This document shows positions 8,869 to 52,195 of a DNA stretch of 64,000 nt, one piece after another. The notes under the pieces were generated by a model. That model made no database searches. It saw only the letters and a program-made list of their open reading frames with translations, and was not told where the DNA came from. Origin of the DNA: Hydrocarboniphaga sp. (GTDB taxonomy: Bacteria; Pseudomonadota; Gammaproteobacteria; Nevskiales; Nevskiaceae); the NCBI RefSeq assembly GCF_028291725.1, contig NZ_JAQGNT010000042.1, positions 62,001-126,000 on the forward strand. Reading direction: 5' to 3'. Made by a program: the position numbers and the translations under genes. Positions within the stretch are counted from its first letter, which is position 1, and every line of letters starts with the position of its first letter.

Positions 8869-9689
8869 CCGCGGCGCCCGCCGCTGGCGCGCTCATTGCC
8901 GTCGAGATCGCGGCGCGTCGCAATCTCGACGAAGCCGGCCCGTTCGAACTGCGCCCGCACCGCCGCTCCCTGATCGTAGCCGTGCTCGACCAGCAGCCAG
9001 CTTCGCGGCAACAGGTATTCGCCGGCATCGGCGATGATTTCACGCAGGCAGGCCAGGCCGTCGGCCTGATCGCTCAGCGCCAACAGCGGCTCGTGTCTGA
9101 GCGCCGGCAGATGCGGATCGCCGGCGGCAATGTACGGCGGATTCGCCACGATCAGATCGAAGCGGCCGTGCAATGCCTCGAACCAGCTGCCGGCGGCGAA
9201 GCTCAGGTTGGCTATGCCGCAGCGCATCGCGTTGCTTTGGGCGACGCCCAGCGCGGCGGTGGAAATATCGGTCGCCAGCACTTGCGACTGCGGCCGCTCG
9301 CTTGCGAGCGCCAAGGCCAGCGCGCCGCTGCCGGTTCCGAGATCGGCGATGCGCCCGGCTCCGGGCGGAAAAACCTCCAGCGCCCATTCGACCAGCAGCT
9401 CGGTTTCGGGACGCGGCACCAGCACGTCCGGATTCACCAGCAGATCCAGCGTCCAGAAGCCCTGTGTGCCGAGCAGATAGGCCACCGGAACCTGGTCGGC
9501 GCGGCGATCCAGCTGGCTTTCAAATACGCGCCGACGGTCTTCGCTCAAGGCCTCGTCGCCACGCGCAAACAAAGCGCCGCGCGAGACCTCGAGTATCGAT
9601 GCCAGCAGCAGCTCGGCATCCAGGCGCGGCGATGCACTGCTCGGCGCGAGCCGTGCACTGGCCGTGATCAGCGCCTCGGCGACGGTCAC
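8865..9689 (-). CDS. prmC: release factor glutamine methyltransferase
   Basis: This 274-residue methyltransferase has the SAM loop [16 protein letters not shown] and the glutamine-methylating motif NPPY ([14 protein letters not shown]), with PrmC-type [14 protein letters not shown] before it. It methylates the glutamine of the GGQ motif in release factors. It starts at a GTG that overlaps the prfA stop as GTGA, so the two are translationally coupled with their enzyme-substrate relation. Confidence 0.95.
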
Positions 9690-10768
9690 TCGCCCAGCTC
9701 CGCGAGCAGCTCGGCCGTGTGCTCATTGAGCAGTGGCACGATCACGCCGTCGAGATCGCCCTGGATCACGCGTTCGAGCTGGTAAAGCGTCAGATTGATG
9801 CGGTGATCGGTGATGCGTCCCTGAGGGAAATTGTAGGTGCGGATGCGCTCGGAACGATCGCCGGAGCCGACCAGTTTCTTGCGCGTGGCGGCGACATCGC
9901 CCTGCTGCTTGCTGCGCTCGGCGTCGAGCAGCCGCGAAGCCAGTAGCGCCATCGCCTTGGCGCGGTTCTTGTGCTGGCTGCGTTCTTCCTGGCATTCGAC
10001 GACCAGGCCACTCGGTAGATGCGTGATGCGGATCGCCGACTCGGTCTTGTTGACGTGCTGGCCGCCGGCGCCGCTGGATCGATACGTGTCGATCTTCAGA
10101 TCCGCCGGATTGATCTCGATCGCCTGCGCCTCTTCAATCTCCGCCAGCACCGCGACCGTCGCCGCCGAGGTGTGGATGCGGCCCTGGGCCTCGGTCTCCG
10201 GCACGCGCTGCACCCGATGCGCGCCGGACTCGAACTTGAGCTGCGAATAAGCACCGAAACCGGCGATGCGGCTGATGATTTCCTTGTAGCCGCCGTGCTC
10301 GCCCTCGCTAGCCGACAGCACTTCGATCTGCCAGCCGCGGTTCTCGGCGTACTTGCTGTACATCCGGTGCAGGTCGCCGGCGAAGATCGCGGCCTCGTCG
10401 CCGCCGGTGCCGGCGCGGATTTCGAGGAACACGTTGTTGGCGTCCAGCGGGTCTTTCGGCACCAGGTAGCCTTGCAAAAAAGTCTCGACCTCGGCGAGCC
10501 TGGCTTCCGCGACCGGCAACTCCGCCTCGGCCATCTGGCGCATGTCGGTATCGCTGTCGTTACGCATCAGCTTCAGACCATCGATCTCGGCGGTGGTCGC
10601 CATGTAGGTGTTGTACGAATCCACCAGCGGACCGAGCTGCGAATATTCCTGCGACAGCCGGCGGAACTTGTCCGGATCGCCGAGCACCTGGGGCGACGAC
10701 AGTTCGCCGGCGATTTCCTCGCGGCGGTCGACCATCTGCTGCAGCTTGTTGAGAAGCGAGTCTTTCAT
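9686..10768 (-). CDS. prfA: peptide chain release factor 1
   Basis: This 360-residue protein matches RF1 length. It has the peptidyl-hydrolysis motif [20 protein letters not shown] and the RF1 stop-codon-reading P-x-T tripeptide in [14 protein letters not shown]. It ends translation at UAA and UAG. In related genomes prfA directly follows hemA; here about 6.2 kb of accessory DNA separates the two, so prfA must have its own promoter. Start at the ATG at 10768. Confidence 0.97.
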
Positions 10769-10825
10769 GCGCGCATTATCGCCTGCCGCCGGGCAGGCAC
10801 GCAGGGCACCGTGTCGTGGGCACCG

Positions 10826-13786
10826 TCAGAACAAAACATCTCCAGACCCGGGGGCCAGGCGCCGGCCCGCGCTCTCGATCAGCGTGGCAAGATCGGCGCT
10901 GCCGAAACCGGCCTCTGCGCGATGCGTGCCGGCATCGACCCACCGCAGGTTCAGCACCTCATACACCGGGCGCCAGGCCGGCGCATCGGCACCGCCGGAG
11001 CCGCGCAACTGCAGATCGGGATTCGGCAGGTAGTGGCCGTTCACGGTACGTAGCCACAGGCGGCGCGCGGGCTGGTAGGGACTCTGCACTTCGGCACGGG
11101 CAAGCACCTGGTTGAGATAGACGCGCTTGCGGCGCTCGGGCTTCCACAGGTGCTGCGGCAGCTGTTCCAGCACACCGTGCATGAAGTCGGCGAAAAAACC
11201 CTGCTCATATTTGTAGATGCGGTGCGGGCGCTCGACGCAGCGCGTACACAAGGTCTTCAGGCCGGCGAGCATCAGGCTCAGCACCCAGTACTCGCCCTGG
11301 TGGCGCTCCAGACGCACCAGGCGGCCGCTGCTCTGCACGTCGAGCGCCTGCGGCGCGATGCGCTCGAACAGCGGCGCGATGGCCTGGCCTAAGAAGTCGG
11401 CGTCGTCGATCGCGCGGTTCAGCGCGAACCACCAGGGCGTATGGCCGTATTCGTCGGTGGCCTGGGGGTCGGCGCCGCGCTCCAGCAGGGCCTCGACCAG
11501 CGCGACGTTGCCGGCATGCGCGGCCAGCATCAGCGGCGTTGCGCCGACCGGCGTGTGATGGTCGATGCCGTACTGCTCGCATTGGCGCAGCACATCCTTG
11601 AAGTTGCGGGCGGCATACGGCGCGAGATGTCGCTGGCGCAGCGAGGCCACCGCACGCCAGGCCTGCATCTGCTGGCTGCGCAGGCTCTCCGGCGCGTGGT
11701 TCCAATTGGCCGGTATGCCGAGTCTGCCGGCCGGCGCCAGACTGCGGGCGGCCTGGAATTGCGCAGACGTCGCCAGCCGCTCGATCCAGGCCTGCTGACC
11801 ATGCCAGAGCGCGTAGTCCATCAGCGCCTGCCGCGGCTTGTTCGACGGCTGTGTACGATCGAGCGCGCGCTCCAGCTGGTCGCCGATGCTGGTTTGCGAC
11901 CACGGCGACCAGGGCACCGGCGCGGATTGCAGGAAAGCCTGGCGGATCGCCTGCGCCTGCTCGGCCTTGCCCTGCAGTTCGAGCTTGCGCGCCTCCTGCG
12001 CCCATTCCTCGCGCGACGAGGCTTTTGCCGCCGCCATCGCCGGCGCATCGCCGGTTTTCAGGCCCAGCAGCCGCAGCAGCGGATGTTCGGTGTCGGATTC
12101 CACCAGCACTAGGCTTTCGACCGCGCGAGTCATCGCCACGTACAGCGCGTTGACGTAGAACTTGTAGATCTCGAGCGACTTGTCGCTCTTGTCGCGGGCG
12201 CGCCGGTATTCCAGCTCCTCGCCCTGCAGATCCGCTTGCGTCACGCCCTCGCAGACCTCTGCGTAGGCGCTGCGCTGACCCGAGATCAGTGCATAGAGAA
12301 TCACGTTCGGGTATTCCAAGCCCTTGGACTCGTGCACCGAGAACACCAGCGGCGTGCGGAAGTGCTCGCGAGCGGCGGCCTTGTCTTCGTCGCGCAGTAC
12401 CACCACGGCATGCTGCACCGAGCCGCGGCTGGCGGCATCGAGCTGGCGCACAGCGGCGTCGCGCAGGCTCAGCAAGCGCACCGCGCCCTCGTCTGCTGAG
12501 GCCGCGCGCACCAGGAAGTTGCTCTCGCGGTCGACCGATCCGAAGCGCGCCTGCTTGATCTTCAGCAGTGTGTTGGCGAGCGCCGTCACCGAGCGCGTGT
12601 TGCGAAAATTCGACTGCAGCACCGACAGCGTCTGCGGCGCCGCCGAAGTGCCCAGGCCGCGCCAGAACAGCGAGCGCACCGCGGCCCACGAGAAAAAGTT
12701 GGGATGCACGATCTGGTTGCTGTCGCCGCACAGCAGGAACTGCCCCGGCTGCTTCAGGCAGGCCAGCACCAGCGCCAGCTGCACGTTGGTCAGATCCTGC
12801 ACCTCGTCGACGACGACGAAGTCGTACACCGGCTCGGCCAGCGCACGCCATTCGTGAGCGACCAGATTCAGATCGAACAGCCCGGCCTCGGCCAGCCAGC
12901 GCCGGTAGCGCTGGAACAGATCGAACGCGGCCTCGCGCATCGCACCGTCCAGCAGCGACTGGCGCTGGCCCAGCGCCAGGTAGGCCGGCAGATCGAGCGC
13001 GCCCTGCTCGGAGGCGCCGAGGACGCCGCGGAATTCTTCGAACAGCGCATGCGCGTCGATGCCGTCGAGCGCACCGCGAGGCGGCCGGTTGCGTGCGAAC
13101 CAGGCACGAAAATCGGCGAAGCTAAGCTCGCGACCAACCGGCACGCGCAACGTCTCGACCAGCTCGCCATAGCTGAGGAATTCGGCCTCCTGCGACGGGT
13201 TGTCGTAACCGTGCGCGCCGTAGAGCGCGCGCGCCGACTGCGCCAGATAGGCCGAATGGGTCACGTACAACACTCGCCCTTGTGCTTCGCGCAGCTTGGC
13301 CAGCGTGACCGCGGTCTTGCCCGAGCCGGCGGAGCCGACCACGATCACCGGCGCCGGCAGCCGGCGCACCGTCTCCTGCGCGTCGTCGAACACGATGGGC
13401 TTGTCCAGCAGCTCGAATTCCGCGCGGACCGGGTCCAGCCAGCGCAGCGGCTGCGGATTCAACGCGGCTGCGTTGGCTGCCGGGTCCGGCGACGGCTCGC
13501 GCTCGATCCGGGCTTCGTCGATCGCCGCGCCGCGCAGGAAGCGCGACTTGTCGTAGGCATGATTCTCGATCACCTCCAGCGCCAGACACACGGTTTCGCC
13601 GCCGCTGCGCGCGAAGCGCAGCAGCAGGCGATTGCTGTAGTCGAGCCGGGCGCGCCAGTAATCGGTGGGCGAGAGCTTCTTGACGTCGGCGCTGCGAAAA
13701 TCACCGGCCTCGATCGCCTTGCGTACTTTGTCGAAGGCCGGGCGCACGCGGCGCAGATCAAGATCCCGATAAATCAGCATGCGCAT
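10826..13786 (-). CDS. RelE-like domain / UvrD-type helicase / ankyrin fusion protein
   Basis: This 986-residue protein has three parts. Residues 1 to about 85 resemble a RelE/ParE toxin fold: two helices, then VKKLSP, WRARLDYSNRLLLRF and LALEVIENHAYDKSRF. Residues of about 120-565 form an SF1 helicase: Walker A GSAGSGKT (151-158), Walker B FVVVDEVQD (323-331), GDSNQ (354-358), QSNFRNT (391-397), VHESKGLEY (484-492) and VAMTRA (550-555). Residues 745 to about 790 are ankyrin-like (GATPLMLAAHAGNVALVEAL). The C-terminal 190 residues are unassigned. It is isolated between prfA and a divergent secreted-protein gene. A phage-defence or nucleic-acid stress role is possible but is inference. Start at the ATG at 13786, with a second ATG two codons later. 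Confidence 0.8.
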   Translation of the reverse strand: MRMLIYRDLDLRRVRPAFDKVRKAIEAGDFRSADVKKLSPTDYWRARLDYSNRLLLRFARSGGETVCLALEVIENHAYDKSRFLRGAAIDEARIEREPSPDPAANAAALNPQPLRWLDPVRAEFELLDKPIVFDDAQETVRRLPAPVIVVGSAGSGKTAVTLAKLREAQGRVLYVTHSAYLAQSARALYGAHGYDNPSQEAEFLSYGELVETLRVPVGRELSFADFRAWFARNRPPRGALDGIDAHALFEEFRGVLGASEQGALDLPAYLALGQRQSLLDGAMREAAFDLFQRYRRWLAEAGLFDLNLVAHEWRALAEPVYDFVVVDEVQDLTNVQLALVLACLKQPGQFLLCGDSNQIVHPNFFSWAAVRSLFWRGLGTSAAPQTLSVLQSNFRNTRSVTALANTLLKIKQARFGSVDRESNFLVRAASADEGAVRLLSLRDAAVRQLDAASRGSVQHAVVVLRDEDKAAAREHFRTPLVFSVHESKGLEYPNVILYALISGQRSAYAEVCEGVTQADLQGEELEYRRARDKSDKSLEIYKFYVNALYVAMTRAVESLVLVESDTEHPLLRLLGLKTGDAPAMAAAKASSREEWAQEARKLELQGKAEQAQAIRQAFLQSAPVPWSPWSQTSIGDQLERALDRTQPSNKPRQALMDYALWHGQQAWIERLATSAQFQAARSLAPAGRLGIPANWNHAPESLRSQQMQAWRAVASLRQRHLAPYAARNFKDVLRQCEQYGIDHHTPVGATPLMLAAHAGNVALVEALLERGADPQATDEYGHTPWWFALNRAIDDADFLGQAIAPLFERIAPQALDVQSSGRLVRLERHQGEYWVLSLMLAGLKTLCTRCVERPHRIYKYEQGFFADFMHGVLEQLPQHLWKPERRKRVYLNQVLARAEVQSPYQPARRLWLRTVNGHYLPNPDLQLRGSGGADAPAWRPVYEVLNLRWVDAGTHRAEAGFGSADLATLIESAGRRLAPGSGDVLF

Positions 13787-13917
13787 GAGGGTAGGTGTTC
13801 CGGGCCGCGCTCACGCTCTATCGAGCGCGGGCTGGCCGAAAGATGCTGTCGCTGTAGTCGTGAGATCGTATTTTGCCGCAATTCTTCGAGGGGAACCTGC
13901 GGACGCTGATGCATCGC

Positions 13918-13955
13918 GGGTCTTTGTCTGACCCCTTGCAGGGTCTTTGCCTGAC
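13918..13955. repeat. 15-bp direct repeat in the 10826/14060 divergent region
   Basis: GGGTCTTTGTCTGAC (13918-13932) recurs with one mismatch as GGGTCTTTGCCTGAC (13941-13955), starts 23 bp apart. It lies in the 273-bp non-coding gap between the helicase fusion and the secreted-protein gene, where both promoters must be. It could be paired operator sites or chance duplication. Confidence 0.4.
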
Positions 13956-14059
13956 ATCGTCGGTTCTATCCATATGCTCTTATCGAACAGGGCCTGAAGA
14001 AAGTCCCGGGGCGCCGATCTCGGCTCCCACTTGTTGGCTTTGTGCGACCGGGGACGGCG

Positions 14060-15400
14060 ATGAATCAGCGCAGCATGTGGATCGCGGTGGCGGCCGTATT
14101 GGCGAGCGCCACCGCCTACGCCGACGTGATCAGCCCGGCACCCGCTATCGACCTGTCGGCAGCTGCTGTCAATCCCAATCTGTTCTCGATCACCGTGGGA
14201 TGCCCCTGGGTCCAAGGCATCGACGCCGATAACCGGAACACCGGCTTCCCGGACAAGGCGGCGACGTACTACACCACGACCATTCCCCTCAATCCCAAGC
14301 CCGGCACCGAGATCGAGATCCGCGGCGGCTATCCGAAGGTGCGGTATTTTTCGCTGCAGTCCTACGATGGCTTCCGACCCGGCAATCTCATCGACAGCCT
14401 GCCGGACGCCCTGATCCAGTCGGACCAGGGCAACGCGCCGCAGGCCAATGCTGCGGTCCTGCCCGATTCCGGCGACTACCAGTATCGCTACAACGCCAAG
14501 ATCAAGTACGAAGACAAGCCGGCCACTACGGCGGACCGCGAACCCAACACGCTTTATGTGGGACACGGCAGCACTCACGGCGCCTTCGTCAAGAACATCG
14601 TGTTTCGCGCCTACCTGCCCAACCCCGGTGTCGCCAGGCCCGGGCCGGAAGAACTGCCACACATGGTCCAGGTCGGGCCCGACGGCGAAATCGATTTCGA
14701 AAACACGCCCGATCAGGCGGCCTGCAAGCTCAACGACCGTTTGCAGCGCTCAGTCAGCGTGTTCCCGGCGCTGGGCGGCAGCGACTCCAGCCTGAGCTTC
14801 GACCCCGTCACCCAGGGCGACACGGCCGGCTTCTATCCCAATGGCGACGCCTACTATCTGCGTGCCCGACCCGGCCGCAACTACTCCGATATGGTGGTGG
14901 TGCGCCTGAAATCGCCGCAGGTACCGGCGGTGCCGCCCGAGGTCGTCGATGACCCGGAAGTGCGTTTCTGGTCGATCTGCCAGTACACCAACATCCACTC
15001 GTCCGTGGTCGACTGCATCGCCGACCGCAACGCGGCGCTGGATGCCGACGGCTACGCCAACATCGTCATATCGACGGAAGGAAAAAAGCCGGATCTGGCA
15101 AGTTCAGCTCAGGGCTACGACTGGCTGCCCTGGGGTGACTCGAGCACGGCCATGGTCGGCCTGCGTCAGTTGCTGGTACGCCCGGACTTTGCGGGCAGCT
15201 ACGGCCGGGCCGTGGCCGAGCCCGAAAAACCCATCGCCGAGACTCTGGGCGAGTGGGCGCCCGAGATCAGCTACTGCGACAGCGTCACGTTCGCCGCCAC
15301 CGCAGCCCAGGGCGGCGCGGCGCTGATGGCGGCCTGTAAAGCGGCCTTTGTGCCGTTGTGGAGCATGCTGGGAACCGTGCTGGGCGATTGGCTGAACTGA
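14060..15400 (+). CDS. secreted protein of unknown function
   Basis: A 446-residue protein beginning MNQRSMWIAVAAVLASATAYADV, a clear Sec signal peptide with probable cleavage after AYA. The mature part has few cysteines and motifs such as VRYFSLQSYDGFRPGNLIDS, EPNTLYVGHGSTHGAF and MVGLRQLLVRPDFAGSYGRA. The phrase YFSLQSYD is reminiscent of DUF1254/DUF1214-type proteins, but I do not recognise the family. The start at 14060 follows a GGGGA-like ribosome-binding site; an in-frame ATG at 14042 would add six residues ahead of the signal peptide. It stands alone in the accessory block. Confidence 0.75.
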   Translation: MNQRSMWIAVAAVLASATAYADVISPAPAIDLSAAAVNPNLFSITVGCPWVQGIDADNRNTGFPDKAATYYTTTIPLNPKPGTEIEIRGGYPKVRYFSLQSYDGFRPGNLIDSLPDALIQSDQGNAPQANAAVLPDSGDYQYRYNAKIKYEDKPATTADREPNTLYVGHGSTHGAFVKNIVFRAYLPNPGVARPGPEELPHMVQVGPDGEIDFENTPDQAACKLNDRLQRSVSVFPALGGSDSSLSFDPVTQGDTAGFYPNGDAYYLRARPGRNYSDMVVVRLKSPQVPAVPPEVVDDPEVRFWSICQYTNIHSSVVDCIADRNAALDADGYANIVISTEGKKPDLASSAQGYDWLPWGDSSTAMVGLRQLLVRPDFAGSYGRAVAEPEKPIAETLGEWAPEISYCDSVTFAATAAQGGAALMAACKAAFVPLWSMLGTVLGDWLN

Positions 15401-15491
15401 TCCCTCGATTTCCGGCTGCCGATGGCTCACGGCCTGAATATGGATTACGATATGACCATCTCCGGCATATTTTTTAGAGGTAATCGGCATC

Positions 15492-15695
15492 ATGAAAACC
15501 ACTGTCGATATTCCAGATCAGGCACTGAAGGATGCGATCCGCTTCACCAAGGCCCGCACCAAGCGGGAGGCCATCGTCATCGCCGTTGAAGACTTTAACC
15601 GGCGCAAGCGCATGGCAGAGCTGAGCCGGTTCGCCGGAACCGGCAACGACATGACGACGGCAGCGGAGTTGCAGGCGCAGCGCCGAAACGGCTAG
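15492..15695 (+). CDS. vapB: VapB-type antitoxin
   Basis: A 67-residue protein beginning MKTTVDIPDQALKDAIRFTK, with the VapB (type II antitoxin) pattern TKREAIVIAVEDFNRRKRM. The N-terminal half dimerises and binds operator DNA; the tail inhibits the toxin. AGAGGT lies just upstream of the ATG. It is 4 bp ahead of the PIN-domain toxin gene. The 91 bp upstream hold AT-rich sequence (GAATATGGATTACGATATG) likely to be the autoregulated promoter. Confidence 0.85.
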   Translation: MKTTVDIPDQALKDAIRFTKARTKREAIVIAVEDFNRRKRMAELSRFAGTGNDMTTAAELQAQRRNG

Positions 15696-15699
15696 CGGC

Positions 15700-16068
15700 A
15701 TGGTGCTCATCGACAGCTCGTCGTGGATTCATTGGCTGCGGAGCAACGGCGATGCCGCAGTACGCTCGCGAGTGAATGCCTGCCTGCAGGCCGGAACCGC
15801 TTGCTGGTCTTCGATGGTCCGCCTGGAGCTTTGGAATGGCGCTGGCGGCGATCAGGAGAAAAAGGTACTGCGCGAACTGGAACGACAGTTACCCGAACTC
15901 GCCGTCACTGCGGAGGTCTGGTCTGCCGCCTGCGAACTGGCCCGCAAGGCGCGTGCTGCCGGCGTCACCGTTCCCGCCAGCGATCTGCTCATCGCCGCCT
16001 GTGCGCGGTACCACGGCGCAGCGCTGGAGCATGCCGATTCGGACTTCGACCTGATCGGCGGAGCATGA
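15700..16068 (+). CDS. vapC: VapC-type PIN-domain RNase toxin
   Basis: A 122-residue PIN-domain protein. The acidic metal-binding residues are Asp5 (VLIDSSSWI), Glu43 (MVRLELWNG), Asp95 (VPASDLLIAACA) and Asp115 (HADSDFDLI). VapC toxins cleave tRNA or rRNA when the antitoxin is lost. It is directly downstream of the VapB gene and looks intact. A set of alternative hairpins follows the stop codon. Confidence 0.9.
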   Translation: MVLIDSSSWIHWLRSNGDAAVRSRVNACLQAGTACWSSMVRLELWNGAGGDQEKKVLRELERQLPELAVTAEVWSAACELARKARAAGVTVPASDLLIAACARYHGAALEHADSDFDLIGGA

Positions 16069-16077
16069 AGCGAGCAG

Positions 16078-16149
16078 GCTGGGTTGCTGCGCAGCGGAAA
16101 CCCAGCGCCGGGATCGAGCGAAGGCGCTGGGTTTCGTTCCTCAACCCAG
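16078..16149 (+). terminator. alternating hairpins downstream of vapC
   Basis: The motif GCTGGGTT and its complement alternate: GCTGGGTT (16078), AACCCAGC (16099), GCTGGGTT (16126), AACCCAG (16143). The strongest hairpin pairs GAAACCCAGCGCC (16097-16109) with GGCGCTGGGTTTC (16123-16135). It may terminate the vapBC message, though the T-tract is weak, or form mutually exclusive structures. Confidence 0.5.
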
Positions 16150-16235
16150 TCGACCTCTGCTGGCATAGTCGTGCCCTGGCTCGCCATTGGTCGGTGAGCG
16201 AGAGCCTCTTGAAGTCGGAGCTGCCGCAAGCTCAG

Positions 16236-16577
16236 CTATCGACCGAGCACCGCATCGATGCCACTTACGACCAGCTGCAGCTTGCGTTGAGCAAGCTTGC
16301 CGGTTCGCTCGGTCAGCAGCGTCGGATCAAGCGCGACCATCAGCGACACGTTCGCAACGGAGTCCCGCGGCAAACCGGTATCGCGGGAAGCGAGCAATGC
16401 ATTGCCCGGTGCGGCGGCCCATTTCAGATTGCTGGTCAGTGGCACACAAACCACGGTCGCGATCCGACTGCAATTGAGCGCGTTGCCTTGAACGACCAGC
16501 ACCGGTCTGCGCAGTCGGGGACCGGACCTTTACGGCTCCGGCAGATCAGCCCACCAGATTTCACCTTGGCCGGTCAC
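16236..16577 (-). pseudogene. mazF: MazF/PemK-type toxin with premature stop
   Basis: Read from the GTG at 16577, the product is a MazF-family endoribonuclease: VTGQGEIWWADLPEP, then an in-frame TAA at 16532-16530, then RSGPRLRRPVLVVQGNALN and onward through VCVPLTSNLKWAAAPGN, GLPRDSVANVSLMVALD and KLAQRKLQLVVSGIDAVLG. Normal family members read PEPxGSGPGYRRPVLVVQ through the stop position, so the TAA is an inactivating mutation. The GTG overlaps the antitoxin stop as GTGA, the usual coupled arrangement. An internal ATG at 16502 would give only the C-terminal two thirds. Confidence 0.8.
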
Positions 16578-16814
16578 CAATCGGTGCGCTTTAATACCTG
16601 ACGAGCCGACTCCGACGAAAAACCGTCAGGCGGCACGTCTCCAACATCCGCGACGACCTGATCCATCGCGGCAGTGATGTCATCGGGTTGGTGGCGTGCC
16701 AAATACTCCTGAAGGGCGCGGCTGTAGATCTCGCTGCGTGATCGCTTGGCGCGCTTCGCCAGCCGCTCGGCCTCGTCGAAAATTAACGTCCGGAATCGAT
16801 ACGGCGGTTTTCAT
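16574..16814 (-). pseudogene. MazE/RHH-type antitoxin with frameshift
   Basis: The ATG at 16814 opens MKTAVSIPDV. The reading then needs a shift of one base near 16783 (GTTAATTTTC, one extra base) to continue as IFDEAERLAKRAKRSRSE, IYSRALQEYLARHQPDDI, TAAMDQVVADVGDVPPD and GFSSESARQVLKRTDW, ending at 16574. Unshifted, the frame leaves the family after about 12 residues. The restored product is a typical ribbon-helix-helix antitoxin of MazEF loci. Together with the stop in the toxin this points to a decayed module rather than a single sequencing error. Confidence 0.75.
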
Positions 16815-16821
16815 ACCTGGG

Positions 16822-16850
16822 GTATAACCACGGGTTCCCAAGTCGTTCAA
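16822..16850 (-). promoter_or_regulatory. sigma-70-type promoter of the decayed MazEF locus
   Basis: On the minus strand TTGAAC (16850-16845) is followed after 17 bp by TTATAC (16827-16822). The ATG is only 7 bp beyond the -10 box, so the message would be nearly leaderless. Confidence 0.5.
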
Positions 16851-16995
16851 TCGTTCCGCGGCCTCACTGCTCAATGGCGGATCGCCTCAGCGCTCCAGCT
16901 CACCGAGATCGACAGATCCTTGCCGCCGACGATCAGATGCTCAACGCCAGCTCGTTCAAAAAACCGACAAACTCTTTACATTTCTCAGCCTGATG

Positions 16996-18258
16996 TTAAG
17001 CGTCCTCGTCGGGCAGATCGAACAGCTTGCGTGCCGACGTCACCAGCATCGCCTGCTCGACGCTGCTGGCCGCGCGCAGCTGGCTGCTCGGCGCATGCAG
17101 CAGCTTGTTGCTGAGCGTGTCGGCGACGAAGGCGATCACGTCTTCGGCCGACGCGCCGTTGGCCAGGCGGCGGCGCGCCTTGGCCAGTACGTCGTCGCGA
17201 TGGGTGCGCGCCGCGCTGCGGATCTGCGCGATCGTCGCGCCGGCGTCGCGGCCTTCGAGCCAGTGGGTGAATTCGAGCGCGTATTCGGCGATCAGCACCT
17301 CGGCCTGCTTGGCCGCCTCGGTGCGCGCCTTCATGTTGTCCTGCACGACGTCGCGCAGGTCGTCGAGCGTGTACAGGTACACGTCCTCGAGTTGGCCGAT
17401 ACGCGGATCGATATCGCGCGGCATCGCCAGGTCGATCATGAAGACCGGCTTGCGCCGGCGCTTCTTCATCGCCGCTTCCATCGCCGAGCGGTCCAGGATG
17501 TGACCGCGCGCGGCAGTCGATGACACCAGCAGGTCGATATCGGGCAGATACGAGCCCAGATCGGTCAGCGGGATCGCGTAGCCCTGCACTTCGCGCGCGA
17601 GCTTCTCGGCTTTCTCGAGGCTGCGGTTGGCGACGATCAGTTTCTGCACGCCCTGCCCGCGCAGATGGCGCGCCAGCAGCTGCACGGTTTCGCCGGCACC
17701 GATCAGCAGCGCCGTGGTTTCGCGAAAGTCGCTGAAGATGCGCTTCGCCATCTGCACCGCGGCGTAGGCCACCGACACCGGATGCGCACCGATCTGGGTG
17801 CTGCTGCGCGCCAGCTTGGCAACCTGGAACGCGTGCTGGAACAGCCGCGACAGCACCGGCCCGAGCACGCGCTGGCTTTGCGCGGTGGCATAGCTCTGTT
17901 TCATCTGGCCGAGTATCTGCGGCTCGCCGACGATCATCGAGTCCAGGCCCGAGGCGACGCGCAGGCTGTGCAGCACCGCGGCCTGGTCGCGATGGGTATA
18001 GACGAACTGGTGGATGTAGTCCTGCGGCGCGTTCAGCTCGCGGCGCCACCATTCCATCAGCCGGCCTTCGTCGTCGGCCGCGGTGATTGCCAGGATCTCG
18101 GTGCGGTTGCAGGTGGACAGGATCGCCGCCTCTTCCACACCCGGCAGCGCCCGCAACCGCGCCAGAGCCGCAGGCAGGTCCGCTTCGGTAAAGGCAAGCC
18201 GCTCGCGCGCCTCGACCGGCGCGCTGTGGTGGCTAAGCCCGAGTGTTATCAAGGCCAT
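16996..18258 (-). CDS. hemA: glutamyl-tRNA reductase
   Basis: This 420-residue protein begins MALITLGLSHHSAPVEARERL. It has the catalytic cysteine in ILSTCNRTEI, the tRNA/substrate region HSLRVASGLDSMIVGEPQIL, the NADPH loop LLIGAGETVQLLARHL and the motif VSSTAARGHIL. It reduces glutamyl-tRNA to glutamate-1-semialdehyde, the first committed step of haem synthesis. It is divergent from the TPR-lolB-ispE operon, as in Pseudomonas. The next gene downstream should be prfA; instead the accessory block begins. Confidence 0.97.
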   Translation of the reverse strand: MALITLGLSHHSAPVEARERLAFTEADLPAALARLRALPGVEEAAILSTCNRTEILAITAADDEGRLMEWWRRELNAPQDYIHQFVYTHRDQAAVLHSLRVASGLDSMIVGEPQILGQMKQSYATAQSQRVLGPVLSRLFQHAFQVAKLARSSTQIGAHPVSVAYAAVQMAKRIFSDFRETTALLIGAGETVQLLARHLRGQGVQKLIVANRSLEKAEKLAREVQGYAIPLTDLGSYLPDIDLLVSSTAARGHILDRSAMEAAMKKRRRKPVFMIDLAMPRDIDPRIGQLEDVYLYTLDDLRDVVQDNMKARTEAAKQAEVLIAEYALEFTHWLEGRDAGATIAQIRSAARTHRDDVLAKARRRLANGASAEDVIAFVADTLSNKLLHAPSSQLRAASSVEQAMLVTSARKLFDLPDEDA

Positions 18259-21701: not shown

Positions 21702-21776
21702 TGGGGCGTCGCCAAGTGGTAAGGCAGCGGGTTTTGATCCCGTCATTCGGTGGTTCGAATCCATCCGCCCCAGCCA
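21702..21776 (+). tRNA. tRNA-Gln (anticodon TTG)
   Basis: A complete 75-nt tRNA with encoded CCA. The acceptor stem TGGGGCG pairs with CGCCCCA, the anticodon arm is GCGGGTTTTGATCCCGT with anticodon TTG, and the T arm contains GGTTCGAATCC. Position between ispE and prs is typical of this group. Confidence 0.95.
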
Positions 21777-45816: not shown

Positions 45817-46545
45817 ATGGCCAACTCCGACACCACCGCCCAGCAGGCCCGCGGACTTCTGGCACGCCGCCATCAGGGCATCCTGTCGACGATGTCACAG
45901 ACCATGACTGGTTATCCGTTCGGCTCTGTGGTCACGTTCGCAGCGGACCGCGACAACCGCCCGCTGATCCTGATCAGCACGATCGCCGAACACACGCGCA
46001 ACATCAAGGCCGACCAGCGCGTGTCACTGACCCTGACCGAAGGCGGCGACGACAGCCAGGCCGAAGCGCGGCTGACCATCGTCGGCATTGCGAACGCCGT
46101 GCCCGAGGCCGAGAGCGAGGACGCCGCGGCCCGCTACTACCGCCGCTTCCCCCACGCCGCCGGCTACCACCGCGCACACGACTTCTCGTTCTACCGGATC
46201 GAGCCGCTGCGCGGCCGCTACATCGGCGGCTTCGGCAGCATCCACTGGATCGAGACCGAAGCGCTGAGCCTGAGCAATCCGTTCAGCGAAACAGACGAAG
46301 CCGGCATGATCGACCACATGAACCGCGATCATGCCGACGCAATGCTCGCCTACTGCAAACTATTCGGAATCGAAATCGGCAAGGAGCCACCGCGGATGTC
46401 GGCAATCGACAGCGAAGGCTTCGACCTGATGCTCGGCCACCGTCTGGCGCGTATCGCATTCGACGCGCCGGCGCAGACGCCGGTCGAGGTGCGCAAGGCG
46501 ATGGTCGCGCTGGTGCAGCGCGCGCGAGTTGGTGGCTTGGTGTAG
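45817..46545 (+). CDS. HugZ-like FMN-binding split-barrel protein with DUF2470
   Basis: A 242-residue protein. The N-terminal pyridoxamine-5'-phosphate-oxidase-like barrel (HQGILSTMSQTMTGYPFGSV, LILISTIAEHTRNIKADQRV, ARYYRRFPHAAGYHRAHDFS) is followed by a DUF2470 helical domain (AGMIDHMNRDHADAMLAYCK). This two-domain layout is that of HugZ-type haem oxygenases and related proteins. Haem oxidation is inferred from the family, not shown. The ATG at 45817 is chosen by the family start. Confidence 0.8.
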   Translation: MANSDTTAQQARGLLARRHQGILSTMSQTMTGYPFGSVVTFAADRDNRPLILISTIAEHTRNIKADQRVSLTLTEGGDDSQAEARLTIVGIANAVPEAESEDAAARYYRRFPHAAGYHRAHDFSFYRIEPLRGRYIGGFGSIHWIETEALSLSNPFSETDEAGMIDHMNRDHADAMLAYCKLFGIEIGKEPPRMSAIDSEGFDLMLGHRLARIAFDAPAQTPVEVRKAMVALVQRARVGGLV

Positions 46546-46719
46546 CTAACCAGCAGCAGCCCCCGAAGGTGGGGACTCGCTCTTGTTTTGTCGCTTTACT
46601 TCTGGTGAGTTGGTGAACTCGTTCACATCACCCCTTTCAAGCTCCGTTGTACTGTAAGCCCAGGGACAAACCTCGTCTGCCGATCCGCAGACGAGCCAGG
46701 GGCAGTCAGGGAGAGAGTC

Positions 46720-49700
46720 ATGAAAGGGATGTCGTCGGCTGTGAAATATTCGGTACTTCTGCGTGAACTTAAGAGCAGCGTGAATCGCCTTGTAAGATTC
46801 TTCCTGCAAGCGCTAGTCATCATTTCGGCAGCCGGCTTAAGCCTCTATACGCCAGCCATTCTCGCCGAGCAGGGCGACGACATCTGTTTCGCTCTCTATC
46901 GGGACACCGGTGCAATTCCCGGCGAAGGTCTCGATTGCAAGCTGACAGCCAGTTTGGCCAGCATCGATCTATCCAGCTATTACTGCACCGCCGGAACGAG
47001 CATCATCGAGCGATACTGCGGCTCTTCCATCGATAAAAATGCAGGCGACAACTGCGAAAATGGAGGGCCAGGCGTTAGTAACCCGATCAATCCGGGCACT
47101 GGCAACAAATATCAGATAGAGCGCGATTTTTCCGTGGCTGGTGTTCATCCGTGGACATTTACGCGCACTTACAACGGCGACAATGGCGTACTTCAAAGAG
47201 GTGTATTCGGGCAAAACTGGTCGAGCAGCTTTTCACAGAAGGCCCAACGTCTGACCGATAGCCGCATGCTGGTCTCTCGCCCCGATGGCAAGGCCTATGC
47301 TTTCAAGCTGAGCGGCGGGCAATGGACTTCTCCGGACGACGTTGCCGATCGGCTGACTCAAGTGAATAACTCATCCGGCATTTTGACGGGCTGGCGATAC
47401 ACCGTTGCCAGCGACGATTCGGTCGAAACCTATAACGCAACCGGACTGCTGACATCGATACGGTATCGCGATGGCTGGCTTTTGACGTTTGCCTATTCAT
47501 CGGCAACTACGCCTGCGAACATCGCACCCGTGCCCGGCTTGCTGATCACGGTGAGCGATACTGCCGGACGCAGTGTCAAGCTCAAATACGATACATCCAG
47601 CCGCGTAGTGCAGATTGCTGTACCCGGAAACGGCAGCTACCAGTATCAGTACGATGGATCCAGCAGCAACTGCAGCGCCTGCAAAAACCTGACTTCGGTG
47701 ATCTATCCGGACGGCCTCGAGCGCACCTATTTCTACAACGAGGCTGCTTATACCGCCGGCGCCAACCTGCCGAATGCCTTGACCGGTATTGCCGATGAAA
47801 GCGGCGCGCGTTTCGCCACCTACCAATACGACAGCTTCGGACGAGCCGTCTCCAGCGAGCATGCGGGCGGTGTCGCCAAATACACGATCGCGTATGACAG
47901 CCTCGCAGCGAGCAGCACCGTCACCGATCCGCATTCCACCATACGAACCTCGGGATTCCAAAGTGTGCTGGGCGTCGTCAAGCAGACTGCACAGGCACAG
48001 CCCAAGAGTAGCGGCCGGGGGACAGATGCCCGAAGCTGGGCATTCGATGACGCTGGCTATCCGTCGAGCAGGGCCGACTATAACGGCAACCTCACGAACT
48101 TCAGCTATGACGGCATCAGGGGTTTGCAGACGCTCCGGACCGAAGCCTCCGGCACTCTACAAGCGCGCACCGTTGCCACCATCTGGCTAAGCAACTATGA
48201 CCTTCCGAAGCAGATCGACGAATACGCGGGTGAAACTGCATCAGGCCTGCCGGAACGTTCGACGACGTTCACTTACGACGGAACGGGAAACCTGCTAACT
48301 CGCACCACCAAGGACCCTTTAACAGGCCTTGCGCGCACCTGGTCCTACTCCAACTACACCAGCTACGGACAACCGCAGACCATCGATGGCCCGCGGAGCG
48401 ACGTTGCCGACATCACGACCGTCAGCTACTACCCGATCGTTCCAGGCAACGCCACTTCGGGGCAGCTATACCAGATCAAGAACGCTCTGAACCACATAAC
48501 CACCTTGAACAGCTATGACGCCAACGGGCGCCCCACCCAGATCACCGATCCCAACGGTACGGCCACCAAGATCAGCTATTTCCCGCGCGGCTGGCTCAAG
48601 ACTGTACAGATCGCGTCAGAGATCACCAGCTTCGACTACTGGCCGACCGGCCAGATCAAGCAGGTGAGTTTTCCGGCAGGGATGAGTCTGAGCTACCACT
48701 ATGACGATGCCCAGCGTCTGACCGATATCTACGACCAACTGGGTGATCGCATTCATTACACCTTGGATGCGATGGGCAACGTAACGCAGACAGACACATT
48801 CGACCCCGAAAATACGCTGGTTCAGACCCACAAGCGGATATATGACGCGCTCGACCGCTTATCGAAGGATGTTGGCGCAAAGACCGCCGAAACCGTGAAG
48901 TATGCATATGACGCCAACGGGAATCTGAGCACGATCATCGACCCGCTGAATCATCAGACTGCTCACGCCTACGACGCCCTCAACCGGCGCTACCAGAGCA
49001 CCGACGCGGACCAGAACGACATCCACTACGTGCTCAACGTACTCGACCAGATTACCGCCATCACGGATCCGCGTGGTTTGACGACCGCATACACCATCGA
49101 CGCTCTGGACAATATCGGAATGATTGAAAGCCCGGATGCCGGCATCATTCAGCACCCGCAGCTTGACCAGGCAGGCAATCTCATCCAGCAGATCGATGCC
49201 AAGCAACAACTTACTTCGTACGAGTATGACGCGATCAATCGGCTCCGAAAAATCACTCACGCCGATGGCTCGGTCATCAACTTCCAGTACGACGAAGGAG
49301 CCAACGGTATCGGACGCCTGACCACCATGACCGATCCTTCCGGCTCTACACACTGGAGCTACGACGCCAACGGCCATGTCGTCGGCAAGAGCCTCAGCAT
49401 CAACGGCAAGAGCTTGTCCACCAGTTATCAGTACGACGCTGTCAGCGGGCAGATCAGCAGCATGACCCTGCCCTCCGGCAAACGAGTGGGTTATTCCTGG
49501 AGCAACGGCCAGATCATAGCCCTGACGCTCAACGATAATGCGCTGGTTTCATCCATCACCTATCAGCCTTTCTCCGGGCCCAGCAGTTGGACCCTGGCCA
49601 ACGGCGAAGCCGTCGGCCGTAGCTACGATCTTGACGGCCGCATCGTCTCGGACCCGGTCAGCGCCAAGATCGAATACGACAACGCTTCGCGCATCACGGT

Positions 49701-50976
49701 GTGGAGGCCGGGAAACCGGAGCGTGATGAGCGGCACCCGCCGCTACGGCTATGACCGGATGGGCCGCTTGACCAGTTACAGCGGTGGCCTTGGCAACTCC
49801 TTCCGCTACCAGTACGACGCCAATGGCAACCGCGAGCAGCAGGTCGCCGGGCTGACGCGGACGACTTACATCATCGATCCCAGCAGCAATCGCATCACGC
49901 AAAGCAAGCGTGGGCTGGGCAAGGACCAAGTCACCGACTACGGCCACGACGACAACGGAAGCCGGACCAGCACCGGCACGGCCACCCTGAGCTACGACAC
50001 CGCCCGCCGGCTCTCGGGCTATCAATCGGCCACACATTCCGCCCAGTATCTCAACGACGGCCTGGGTCAGCGAGCGCGCAAGGCAGTCGACGGTATCTCC
50101 ACGCTATTCGTCTATGACGAAGCGGGACACCTGCTCGGCGAATACGATGCAAACGCGGCACCAATCCAGGAAACCGTCTATCTCGGTGACATGCCCGTCG
50201 CGCTGCTCGCCCGTGGCGCCGTGCACTACATCCATGCCGACTACCGCAACATGCCAAGACAGATAGACGACCAGAACCAGAATGCCCTCTGGGCCTGGGA
50301 TCCGACACCGTTCGGTGACAATCTCCCTGATGAAAGCCCTTCCGGCGTGTCGGTCAGCTTCGTCTACAACCTGCGCTATCCCGGCCAATACTTCGATGCA
50401 GAGTCAGGGCTGTTCTATAACTATCAGCGGGATTACGATCCAGCGTTGGGACGGTATCTGCAATCCGATCCGATTGGACTGGCGGGAGGGCTGAATACTT
50501 ACAGCTATGTCGGGGGGAATCCGGTTTCGCTCACCGATTCGCTCGGTCTGTATTCACTTACAGGAACCCTCGTCTTCGGCCCCTATGGTGGGCAAGTAAC
50601 AATCTACGGCTTGGGCTCCATCCCGAGCCTGAACTTGAATAGCCTTACCGCGATCGATGTGAGACTTGCAGGCGGATTCGCGGCCGGATACAAGTTCGAT
50701 CCAGATGGCGCGAGACCACGATCCAATCTGAGGGCCAGTCTCTTCTGCCAAGCTACGGCCGCATATGGGCCAGCGAAAATAGGGGACAGCTATGCCCTTG
50801 GCATCGACATCAATCCGATTCAAGGCAGAGATTTACCGGAAACGCTGCAGAACCTTAGCAATATGATTACTCCTTTCCATGGACCAACCGACCCGACCTT
50901 CTCCCCCAATGCCAGCCTACAGGGAGGAATCTCGGCGAATGGAGGCATCGACTTTTACCTGCCACTGGGCGAATAA
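46720..50976 (+). CDS. RHS/YD-repeat protein with variable C-terminal tip
   Basis: A 1418-residue exported RHS protein. A hydrophobic segment at about residues 26-50 (ALVIISAAGLSLYTPAILAE) acts as signal or anchor. A DUF6531-type entry follows (GTGNKYQIERDFSVAGVHPW), then some thirty YD repeats (for example YEYDAINRLRKITHADGSVI). The RHS core motif is GLFYNYQRDYDPALGRYLQS with DPIGLAGGLNTYSYVGGNPV, ending at DSLGL. The last 131 residues are unlike the core and should be the effector tip; no known toxin domain is recognised. The composition is less GC-rich than the flanks. A small membrane protein gene follows at 2 bp. GGGAGAGAG precedes the ATG. Confidence 0.9.
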   Translation: MKGMSSAVKYSVLLRELKSSVNRLVRFFLQALVIISAAGLSLYTPAILAEQGDDICFALYRDTGAIPGEGLDCKLTASLASIDLSSYYCTAGTSIIERYCGSSIDKNAGDNCENGGPGVSNPINPGTGNKYQIERDFSVAGVHPWTFTRTYNGDNGVLQRGVFGQNWSSSFSQKAQRLTDSRMLVSRPDGKAYAFKLSGGQWTSPDDVADRLTQVNNSSGILTGWRYTVASDDSVETYNATGLLTSIRYRDGWLLTFAYSSATTPANIAPVPGLLITVSDTAGRSVKLKYDTSSRVVQIAVPGNGSYQYQYDGSSSNCSACKNLTSVIYPDGLERTYFYNEAAYTAGANLPNALTGIADESGARFATYQYDSFGRAVSSEHAGGVAKYTIAYDSLAASSTVTDPHSTIRTSGFQSVLGVVKQTAQAQPKSSGRGTDARSWAFDDAGYPSSRADYNGNLTNFSYDGIRGLQTLRTEASGTLQARTVATIWLSNYDLPKQIDEYAGETASGLPERSTTFTYDGTGNLLTRTTKDPLTGLARTWSYSNYTSYGQPQTIDGPRSDVADITTVSYYPIVPGNATSGQLYQIKNALNHITTLNSYDANGRPTQITDPNGTATKISYFPRGWLKTVQIASEITSFDYWPTGQIKQVSFPAGMSLSYHYDDAQRLTDIYDQLGDRIHYTLDAMGNVTQTDTFDPENTLVQTHKRIYDALDRLSKDVGAKTAETVKYAYDANGNLSTIIDPLNHQTAHAYDALNRRYQSTDADQNDIHYVLNVLDQITAITDPRGLTTAYTIDALDNIGMIESPDAGIIQHPQLDQAGNLIQQIDAKQQLTSYEYDAINRLRKITHADGSVINFQYDEGANGIGRLTTMTDPSGSTHWSYDANGHVVGKSLSINGKSLSTSYQYDAVSGQISSMTLPSGKRVGYSWSNGQIIALTLNDNALVSSITYQPFSGPSSWTLANGEAVGRSYDLDGRIVSDPVSAKIEYDNASRITVWRPGNRSVMSGTRRYGYDRMGRLTSYSGGLGNSFRYQYDANGNREQQVAGLTRTTYIIDPSSNRITQSKRGLGKDQVTDYGHDDNGSRTSTGTATLSYDTARRLSGYQSATHSAQYLNDGLGQRARKAVDGISTLFVYDEAGHLLGEYDANAAPIQETVYLGDMPVALLARGAVHYIHADYRNMPRQIDDQNQNALWAWDPTPFGDNLPDESPSGVSVSFVYNLRYPGQYFDAESGLFYNYQRDYDPALGRYLQSDPIGLAGGLNTYSYVGGNPVSLTDSLGLYSLTGTLVFGPYGGQVTIYGLGSIPSLNLNSLTAIDVRLAGGFAAGYKFDPDGARPRSNLRASLFCQATAAYGPAKIGDSYALGIDINPIQGRDLPETLQNLSNMITPFHGPTDPTFSPNASLQGGISANGGIDFYLPLGE

Positions 50977-50978
50977 GC

Positions 50979-51452
50979 ATGATGAAAAAACCTTGGCTGA
51001 GCCTTCGGATTCTGTTTGTACTAGCGGCCTCATTCTGGTTTTCCTTCTCTGGCGGACTCCCTGCCACGGAGAAGAACCTTGACGGCTCTGCCGTAGGCAC
51101 GATGGTTTTCTTGGCTACCTTTTCCCTACTGGCAGTCGTATTTTTTTCCGCGATGTCTGCCGTCGGGGCGCGTTTTCTGAAGATAAGGTGGAGATATCCG
51201 GATTGGTGTGTTAATCCACTGTGGCCAATCGACCCTTTGCAACTACTGCACATCGCAGGGTTTTCTCTTGTCGGTGTCGGGGTCTTGATCTTTCTTCGTC
51301 ATCGCTTTTCCGGATTGAACGGAAGCTCCGGATTGTATTTATGTAGTATCGGAGTTGGAGCCCTTTCGGGGAATTACATTTCAGCCGCTCTATTTTTGTC
51401 ACGAGTCTGGACAGGAAATAATGAGGCAAGACCTCAACACGGCAAACTATAG
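50979..51452 (+). CDS. four-helix membrane protein, candidate RHS immunity protein
   Basis: A 157-residue protein starting 2 bp after the RHS stop. Four likely membrane helices: ILFVLAASFWFSFSGGL, MVFLATFSLLAVVFFSAMSA, LLHIAGFSLVGVGVLIFL and LYLCSIGVGALSGNYISAAL. No family is recognised. RHS tips are usually paired with an immunity gene immediately downstream; the tight coupling and low GC content fit that, and a membrane immunity protein would suit a tip acting at the membrane or periplasm. Function is inferred from position only. Confidence 0.6.
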   Translation: MMKKPWLSLRILFVLAASFWFSFSGGLPATEKNLDGSAVGTMVFLATFSLLAVVFFSAMSAVGARFLKIRWRYPDWCVNPLWPIDPLQLLHIAGFSLVGVGVLIFLRHRFSGLNGSSGLYLCSIGVGALSGNYISAALFLSRVWTGNNEARPQHGKL

Positions 51453-51472
51453 GGTTGTGCGACGCTTCCTAG

Positions 51473-52195
51473 TTAGAGCTTCACCGCAGCCAGATTAATC
51501 AACGTCTCCTCGCGCGTCGCGCGGGGGCGCAGGCCGAACCAGCGCTCCATTACGCCGAGGTCGCTGCGACTCCACCATAGGTAGGGATAGGAAACTGACT
51601 TCGGGTCGATCGTGAAGCCGGCGGCGCGTAGCATTGCCAGGTATTCGTCGGCGGTGCGCTGCACGTCCATCGGGTGGCGGAACAGCAGGCGGATGATCCA
51701 GGAGTGGATGTATTTGCGCGTCGATTCGGCGAACAGCAGCACCCCGCCCGGCTTCAATACGCGGATGAATTCGCGCAGCGCGGCGTCCTGTTCGACCAGG
51801 TGGTGGAAGGTCTGATGGCACAGCAGCAGGTCGACCGAAGCGTCGGCCAGCGGCAGTTGCGAGCAGCTGCCCTGATGCAGTTCGACGTTCAGACCCTGCT
51901 GCTGCACGGTCTCGGCCGACTTGGCCAGCATCTCCGGGTCCAGATCGATGCCGATCATGCGTTGCGGCGCGAAGTTCTCCTTCAGCAGCGCGAACGAACG
52001 CCCCCAGCCGCAGCCGATGTCGGCGACGACCTCATAGGACACCCGGCACTGTGGAATCAGCGGCAGCAGATCGGCGATCGCACGCCGCAGTACGTGCGTG
52101 GACCAGACGTCGGTGCTCAGGAACCAGACACCGAAACGCGATTCGGGCACATGCAGTGCGGACACCGGGCCGGCGTTGAGAGTGTTTACGTCCAT
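51473..52195 (-). CDS. SAM-dependent methyltransferase of the pigment cluster
   Basis: A 240-residue class I methyltransferase: SAM loop EVVADIGCGWGRSFALLKEN, MIGIDLDPEMLAKSAETV, and FIRVLKPGGVLLFAESTRKY. Aryl-polyene and xanthomonadin-type clusters commonly carry a methyltransferase that modifies the aryl head group; its place as last gene of the minus-strand operon fits that role. The ATG at 52195 is chosen; upstream codons run into the family B repeat. Confidence 0.8.
   Translation of the reverse strand: MDVNTLNAGPVSALHVPESRFGVWFLSTDVWSTHVLRRAIADLLPLIPQCRVSYEVVADIGCGWGRSFALLKENFAPQRMIGIDLDPEMLAKSAETVQQQGLNVELHQGSCSQLPLADASVDLLLCHQTFHHLVEQDAALREFIRVLKPGGVLLFAESTRKYIHSWIIRLLFRHPMDVQRTADEYLAMLRAAGFTIDPKSVSYPYLWWSRSDLGVMERWFGLRPRATREETLINLAAVKL

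What the first reader, a model, noticed from the sequence alone, without database searches (positions are those of the whole stretch)
10826..13786. RelE-like toxin fold fused to an SF1 helicase and an ankyrin-like segment
The first ~85 residues read like a RelE/ParE toxin (two helices, then beta strands with WRARLDYSNRLLLRF and LEVIENHAY), followed in the same chain by a complete UvrD-type helicase motif set and an ankyrin-like segment. A toxin fold without a partner antitoxin, covalently tied to an ATP-driven nucleic-acid motor and a protein-interaction module, suggests a self-contained sensing and killing device or an RNA/DNA-targeting defence protein. It lies in an accessory block that interrupts a conserved operon. 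I know of no described system with exactly this order, but could not search.
Basis: partly seen in the sequence, partly recalled or inferred. Interest (0 to 1): 0.72.

Follow-up and report, generated by a model that had tools for sequence, protein, structure and literature searches.

The report
Solo RelE-toxin–helicase–ankyrin fusion gene
A single mobile bacterial gene joins a toxin-type RNA-cutting fold, a helicase motor and ankyrin repeats in one protein; a shorter cousin of this design belongs to a known anti-phage system, but this stand-alone version appears undescribed and untested.

Summary
The gene lies on the minus strand (13786..10826, 986 aa). Residues 1-90 have no significant Pfam match, but their predicted structure (pLDDT 91) has the RelE/YoeB/HigB/ParE fold, and a profile of the family plus distant relatives aligns with YoeB better than 100 of 100 column-shuffled decoys. 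Residues 123-582 are a UvrD-type helicase, 733-799 ankyrin repeats; the C-terminus matches nothing. The architecture is conserved in 71 full-length relatives. The N-terminal domain is under purifying selection like the helicase's, and no intact copy of it stood alone in 369 genomes. The gene is patchy, sits in varied contexts and on plasmids, and no partner antitoxin was found. Here it is part of a 6.2-kb block between hemA and prfA, which lie 60-125 bases apart in 10 of 11 relatives examined. But ArmD is 704 aa, lacks ankyrins, aligns only in the helicase (22% identity) and needs three partner genes, none found beside this family. Verdict: a stand-alone, ankyrin-bearing variant of a recently described kind. 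An anti-phage RNase-helicase role is likeliest but inferred; no defence-gene enrichment was seen around it.

The parts
10826..13786 (-). whole gene, 986 aa RelE-UvrD-ankyrin fusion protein
   Evidence: full-length relatives
13517..13786 (-). residues 1-90: RelE/YoeB-fold domain (K36 K37 R45 R53 H76 Y78 conserved)
13421..13516 (-). residues 91-122: variable linker, partly low-confidence
12041..13420 (-). residues 123-582: UvrD/Rep-type SF1 helicase core
   Evidence: Pfam; VIA-align Z 24.2, rmsd 4.2 to Rep 1uaa_B over 400 residues
13313..13336 (-). Walker A GSAGSGKT (residues 151-158)
   Evidence: sequence; invariant in 13 aligned relatives
12794..12808 (-). Walker B DEVQD (residues 327-331)
   Evidence: sequence; invariant in 13 aligned relatives
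11645..12040 (-). residues 583-714: mostly helical region
11357..11644 (-). residues 715-810: ankyrin-repeat segment (Pfam 733-799)
10829..11356 (-). residues 811-986: C-terminal region without usable Pfam match; moderately conserved to about residue 950
10769..16995 (.). accessory block of 6.2 kb between hemA (16996-18258) and prfA (9686-10768)

Best explanation
The gene encodes a stand-alone, horizontally mobile defence protein in which a RelE/YoeB-type endoribonuclease domain is held and aimed by an SF1 UvrD-type motor, with ankyrin repeats and a C-terminal domain acting as sensor or autoinhibitory clamp. Proposed working: at rest the RelE domain is silenced within its own chain instead of by a separate antitoxin. 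When the motor engages foreign or stalled nucleic acid, or the ankyrins bind a phage product, ATP-driven movement exposes the RelE domain, which cuts mRNA, probably at the ribosome. Shown here: the domain order, its conservation, purifying selection on the RelE domain, no partner found, and mobility. Inferred: RNase activity, target, trigger and the anti-phage role, the last mainly from ArmD of ARMADA II.
For: Fold of residues 1-90. Profile with four distant relatives added against YoeB: score 29.9, probability 70%, P 4.2e-5; best of 100 column-shuffled decoys 21.8; no alignment with a ParE profile. K37, R45, R53, H76 and Y78 each identical in 72 of 72 (window plus 71 relatives). dN/dS of the RelE domain about 0.09-0.19 in 6 pairs; helicase 0.06-0.20. 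In 369 genomes of the class 16 carry the N-terminal domain in 19 places; each place is in a frame of 897 residues or more, in a frame cut by a contig edge, or a fragment or decayed copy. Patchy, own genome counted: 3 of 85 in the order, 17 of 369 in the class, some partial or distant, 10 of 299 in the phylum. Plasmids: 145 records, 125 with at least 80% of the query in one place. ArmD has the same RelE-UvrD order; [quoted passage not shown]
Against: No experiment. No defence enrichment: PADLOC at 1e-15 finds 20 families among the 150 nearest neighbours (Cas12-type models that look like IS605 TnpB, Csx1 in 2, mad3 in 2, mad2, RT_UG29, RTasDnaG-like, PDC-M28B, PDC-S01) and likewise 20 families among 150 genes at least 5 kb away in the same loci. 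Such matches can be false: the window's prmC matches mad2 at 8.7e-20 and its ThiF-family gene E1-E2 models; no other of the 10 window genes scanned matches. The YoeB general base Glu46 (recalled) has no conserved counterpart: the residue I align with it by eye (34) is mostly D or Q. YoeB's His-Tyr end falls one column away from H76 in the alignment. R45 is not invariant in the more diverse alignment A1. ArmD's RelE domain is not detectably related by sequence (score 14.4, decoys up to 18.1).
Confidence: 0.42

Rival explanations
1. The RelE-fold domain is a non-cleaving ribosome- or RNA-docking module. It brings an SF1 motor to stalled ribosomes or transcription complexes, so that the protein is a rescue or conflict-resolution factor and not a toxin.
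For: RelE-fold proteins bind the ribosomal A site (recalled; also PMC11980606 passage); the helicase also resembles HelD, the RNA polymerase recycling motor (Z 21.1 to 8q3i_H); neighbours are mixed and show no defence enrichment over distal genes.
Against: A rescue factor would be expected in most members of a lineage, but it is found in 17 of 369 genomes of the class and on plasmids. Polar residues typical of a catalytic site are invariant.
Confidence: 0.22
2. It is a self-contained addiction or plasmid-maintenance device: a single-gene toxin-antitoxin unit in which the rest of the chain is the antitoxin.
For: No partner gene recurs; it occurs on plasmids, 103 of the 145 matching records being Shigella; fused toxin-antitoxin genes are known (PMC11980606, passages).
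Against: Post-segregational killing needs a labile antitoxin, whereas here it would be part of the same chain. A 460-residue conserved ATPase is not needed for addiction. Copies on very long chromosomal contigs exist (for example L058, L095, L098).
Confidence: 0.12
3. It is a DNA-repair or recombination SF1 helicase whose N-terminal domain kept the fold but serves only for protein interaction, as ParE-type folds do on gyrase.
For: Best helicase matches are Rep, UvrD and PcrA; ParE toxins share the fold but lack the catalytic residues (PMC11980606, passages).
Against: The profile aligns with YoeB, not ParE; basic residues plus His and Tyr are invariant; the distribution is accessory.
Confidence: 0.19

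Closest known systems
ArmD of ARMADA Type II (E. coli NCTC 12900, ATCC 8739; PMC12458937)
   Same: N-terminal RelE-like domain followed by a UvrD-family helicase in one chain
   Different: the ATCC 8739 ArmD is 704 aa with no ankyrin match, 22% identity to this protein in the helicase only, RelE domain not above decoys, and it acts in a four-gene operon whose other genes were not found around this family
YoeB/RelE/HigB ribosome-dependent mRNases
   Same: fold, YoeB profile similarity, several conserved basic, His and Tyr positions
   Different: those are small proteins with an adjacent antitoxin (recalled; PMC11980606 abstract); here the domain is fused and no partner was found
Schlafen proteins (SLFN11, SLFN14)
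   Same: analogy from recall: an RNase domain N-terminal to an SF1 helicase in one antiviral chain; the helicase region matches at Z 19.1 and 18.1
   Different: the Schlafen RNase domain is of another fold and these are animal proteins (both recalled)
Gabija GajB
   Same: UvrD-like helicase, best PADLOC match 2.9e-10
   Different: GajB acts with GajA and lacks a RelE domain (recalled); no GajA model among the families listed for 150 neighbours
Cami1 (CRISPR type III effector)
   Same: RelE-fold domain as part of a larger chain, solved on the 70S ribosome (8phj, Z 7.6)
   Different: bound and regulated by cA4 (title of 8phj; rest recalled), no helicase

Membership tests
RelE/ParE (BECR) fold superfamily | characteristic fold | tested here: met
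   predicted model; 49 of 50 entries listed by VIA-align are superfamily proteins, best Z 8.7, rmsd 2.5, 75 residues; Foldseek best E 1.2e-3
RelE/ParE (BECR) fold superfamily | sequence-profile similarity to a superfamily family | tested here: inconclusive
   no Pfam match for the window protein; family plus distant relatives vs YoeB P 4.2e-5, above 100 decoys, probability 70%; close family alone probability 25%
RelE/YoeB mRNase | catalytic residues | tested here: inconclusive
   R53, H76, Y78 invariant; by eye these match YoeB Arg65, His83, Tyr84 (YoeB numbers recalled); the MAFFT alignment supports the Arg but places YoeB His-Tyr one column off; no conserved Glu46 counterpart
RelE/YoeB mRNase | ribosome-dependent mRNA cleavage | not testable with these tools
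   needs biochemistry
type II toxin-antitoxin module | adjacent antitoxin gene | tested here: not met
   over 81 loci the widest neighbour cluster apart from an antisense artefact spans 8 loci at scattered places; no Pfam family in more than 4 of 150 nearest neighbours
UvrD-type SF1 helicase | motif set and core fold | tested here: met
   Z 24.2 to Rep
ARMADA Type II ArmD | RelE domain N-terminal to UvrD helicase | tested here: met
   ArmD per PMC12458937
ARMADA Type II ArmD | operon with ArmA, ArmB, ArmC | tested here: not met
   tblastn of ATCC 8739 ArmA, ArmB, ArmC against 83 loci and the window: no match at 1e-5; many loci end within 10 kb at contig edges
ARMADA Type II ArmD | specific sequence kinship of both domains | tested here: inconclusive
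   22% identity, E 2e-7, helicase only; RelE part within decoys
Gabija GajB | partner GajA | tested here: inconclusive
   not among the 20 PADLOC families for 150 of 766 neighbours nor for 10 window genes
Schlafen | Schlafen-type RNase domain | tested here: inconclusive
   the N-terminal domain matches the RelE fold; Schlafen matches concern the helicase region
anti-phage defence system | phage protection | not testable with these tools
   no experiment possible

The most novel reading that the evidence does not exclude
A one-gene bacterial immune effector of Schlafen-like design: a ribosome-targeting RelE/YoeB-type RNase switched by an SF1 motor and ankyrin sensor in the same chain, needing no antitoxin and no partner, spread by mobile elements.
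Probability: 0.28. Interest if true: 0.78.

Novelty: new variant of a known kind. Interest (0 to 1): 0.55.

Why it matters
It would show how a toxin domain can be kept safe without an antitoxin gene, by a motor and sensor in its own chain, and would extend RelE-helicase immunity from the four-gene ARMADA II to a solo gene that is easy to clone and test. It also gives a candidate function to a gene that plasmid records annotate only as UvrD-helicase, AAA ATPase or ankyrin protein.

Tried and rejected
Pfam, phmmer and profile search of the PDB for residues 1-90 gave nothing significant; only fold comparison and profile-profile alignment worked. A ParE profile gave no alignment. The YoeB comparison with the close family alone was weak (probability 25%, score 23.5; best of 100 decoys 20.4) and became firmer only with four distant relatives added. 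ArmD's RelE domain did not rise above decoys. The C-terminal 187 residues gave no usable Pfam match. A tRNA at the block edge: none, the only one in the window is at 21702. Direct repeats at the block edges: a 26-base pair (81%; 10737 and 17096) flanks the block but lies inside prfA and hemA and is probably chance. Promoter and terminator scans gave counts near or below shuffles. Defence-island enrichment: looked for with a distal control (150 genes from 60 loci, at least 5 kb away) and not found, 20 PADLOC families in each set. Ten paper searches listed no solo RelE-UvrD-ankyrin protein; of the papers listed I opened six (PMC5512222, PMC3506569, PMC3710099, PMC7251935: passages only; PMC11980606: abstract, outline and passages; PMC12458937: abstract, outline, sections 6 and 11 and passages). 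PMC11980606 says that many multidomain proteins were left out of its analysis, some because no antitoxin could be identified.

Rows dropped: L052 (partial) and L109 were left out of the gap analysis (79 of 81 loci). The conservation counts use 71 of 74 loci with a BLAST hit (L041, L052, L074 not full length from residue 1) plus the window. A2 and A3 use 44 of 47 non-redundant relatives; I left out L031, L039 and L084 for brevity. 150 of 766 predicted neighbour genes were scanned, nearest first, up to 900 aa. In one search the simple gene caller missed the main gene in 7 of 81 loci because an antisense frame was longer; these frames formed a 7-locus cluster that I discounted. My notebook entry calls plasmid copies intact; only coverage was measured.

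Full report
WHAT IS THERE. The reported stretch is one open reading frame on the minus strand, 13786..10826, 986 codons, present once in a 6.5-Mb genome. Pfam finds UvrD-helicase, UvrD_C_2 and ankyrin matches above cut-off. The N-terminal 98 residues give no Pfam family and no PDB match by phmmer.

THE N-TERMINAL DOMAIN. A model of residues 1-100 made from 45 aligned sequences reaches pLDDT 91. Foldseek ranks YoeB and RelE toxins first, best E 1.2e-3 with none at or below 0.001. VIA-align gives Z 8.7, rmsd 2.5 over 75 residues to Staphylococcus YoeB, and 49 of 50 entries listed are superfamily proteins; the other is Txp40. A Z near 8 alone can be a common arrangement, as the tool warns, but the uniformity of the list and an independent profile test support kinship. 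A profile of the family plus four distant relatives against YoeB scores 29.9 (P 4.2e-5, probability 70%), with the best of 100 column-shuffled decoys at 21.8; ParE gives nothing. With the close family alone the result was weaker: score 23.5, probability 25%, best decoy 20.4.

CONSERVATION. In the window and 71 full-length relatives K37, R45, R53, H76 and Y78 are identical in 72 of 72; K36, S81 and R82 in 71, F83 in 72. In the more diverse 13-member alignment R45 is not invariant, the others are. In the cross-family alignment R53 is also seen in ArmD, in four distant relatives (L019, L150, L151, L152) and in YoeB; H76 and Y78 are shared with ArmD and the distant relatives, while YoeB's His-Tyr end falls one column away. 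R45 is not kept outside the close family. Purifying selection on the RelE domain (dN/dS about 0.09-0.19 in six pairs) resembles that on the helicase, 0.06-0.20.

HELICASE, ANKYRINS AND C-TERMINUS. The full-length model (pLDDT 86) matches Rep at Z 24.2 and UvrD and PcrA at Z 22-23; HelD (21) and SLFN11 (19) also match. The stretch between motifs IV and V is about 85 residues by eye, so the large 2B domain of UvrD (recalled) is probably missing. Ankyrins lie at 733-799. Residues 811-986 match no Pfam family usefully and are moderately conserved to about 950.

DISTRIBUTION. Own genome counted, matches occur in 3 of 85 genomes of the order, 17 of 369 of the class at E <= 1e-20, some partial or distant, and 10 of 299 of the phylum. 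Plasmids: 145 records, of which 125 have at least 80% of the query in one place; by organism 103 Shigella, 13 Escherichia, 10 Piscirickettsia, also Deinococcus, Thermus and Methylosinus. Phage records: none. With the N-terminal domain alone as query, 16 of 369 class genomes match in 19 places; none is an intact stand-alone gene.

CONTEXT. HemA and prfA alignments lie about 60-125 bases apart in 10 of 11 relatives examined (12 of 26 family genomes gave loci, own genome included); the eleventh, G009, has an acyltransferase-like ORF in 1.27 kb there. In the window 6.2 kb lie between them: this gene, a 452-aa ORF and a VapBC-like pair. The site therefore accepts different cargo. Across 81 loci no neighbour recurs at a fixed place: leaving out an antisense artefact, the widest cluster spans 8 loci at positions from -5 to +7, and no Pfam family exceeds 4 of 150 nearest neighbours. 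PADLOC lists 20 families for the 150 nearest neighbours and 20 for 150 distal genes of the same loci, so no enrichment is seen; some such matches are plainly false, as prmC and a ThiF-family gene of the window show.

RELATION TO ARMADA. The preprint PMC12458937 (abstract, sections 6 and 11, passages; [quoted passage not shown] All four ARMADA genes are needed, the ArmD Walker A mutation abolishes protection, the Walker B mutation only partly does, and infected cells stayed intact. I read ArmD from E. coli ATCC 8739. It is 704 aa, without ankyrin match, 22% identical in the helicase only, and its RelE part does not rise above decoys against this family. ArmA, ArmB, ArmC, DruE, DruH, ZorA and ZorE have no match in 83 loci or the window. 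So the kind is known, but this family is not shown to be ArmD and lacks its operon.

DISTANT RELATIVES. One class genome (G124) has three proteins in open frames of 1143, 1549 and 1664 residues (read, the longest cut at 1590 by my stretch), with a RelE-like start, an SF1 domain and, in two of three, many ankyrins. A profile of their N-termini with that of L019 aligns with this family at 97% probability. The design is thus more variable than the close family.

MECHANISM AND VERDICT. The best-supported reading is a solo RNase-helicase immune protein with in-chain control of the toxin domain. The architecture is shown; activity, trigger and benefit are inferred. Ordinary alternatives (ribosome rescue factor, repair helicase with a docking domain, addiction unit) are not excluded. 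Interest is moderate to fairly high because the gene is widespread, self-contained and directly testable; novelty is limited by ArmD.

Noticed in passing
window 15492-16068: VapB-like antitoxin ORF (15492-15695, named by eye) followed by a PIN-domain VapC (15700-16068, Pfam PIN 4.8e-13) in the same inserted block.
   Followed up: partly
window 16680-16874 (minus): A second short antitoxin-like start that looks truncated or frameshifted, facing the VapBC pair; possibly a remnant.
   Followed up: no
window 14042-15400: 452-aa ORF with a signal-peptide-like start and no Pfam or PADLOC match, divergent from the helicase gene.
   Followed up: partly
L154 1889-2980: A relative of the same genus carries an acyltransferase-like gene (by eye) at the same hemA-prfA site, so the site takes different cargo.
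   Followed up: partly
L150, L151, L152: Three large paralogues in one genome: RelE-like start, divergent SF1 domain, and long ankyrin arrays in two of the three.
   Followed up: partly
plasmid records: Relatives on 103 Shigella plasmid records among 145 matching ones; most listed rows are annotated UvrD-helicase domain-containing or hypothetical protein. Intactness not checked, records not fetched.
   Followed up: no
L074 10001-12856: This copy is split into two frames, so it is probably inactivated.
   Followed up: no
window 46000-52000: GC falls to about 57-59% against 64-68% around it; another likely accessory region.
   Followed up: no
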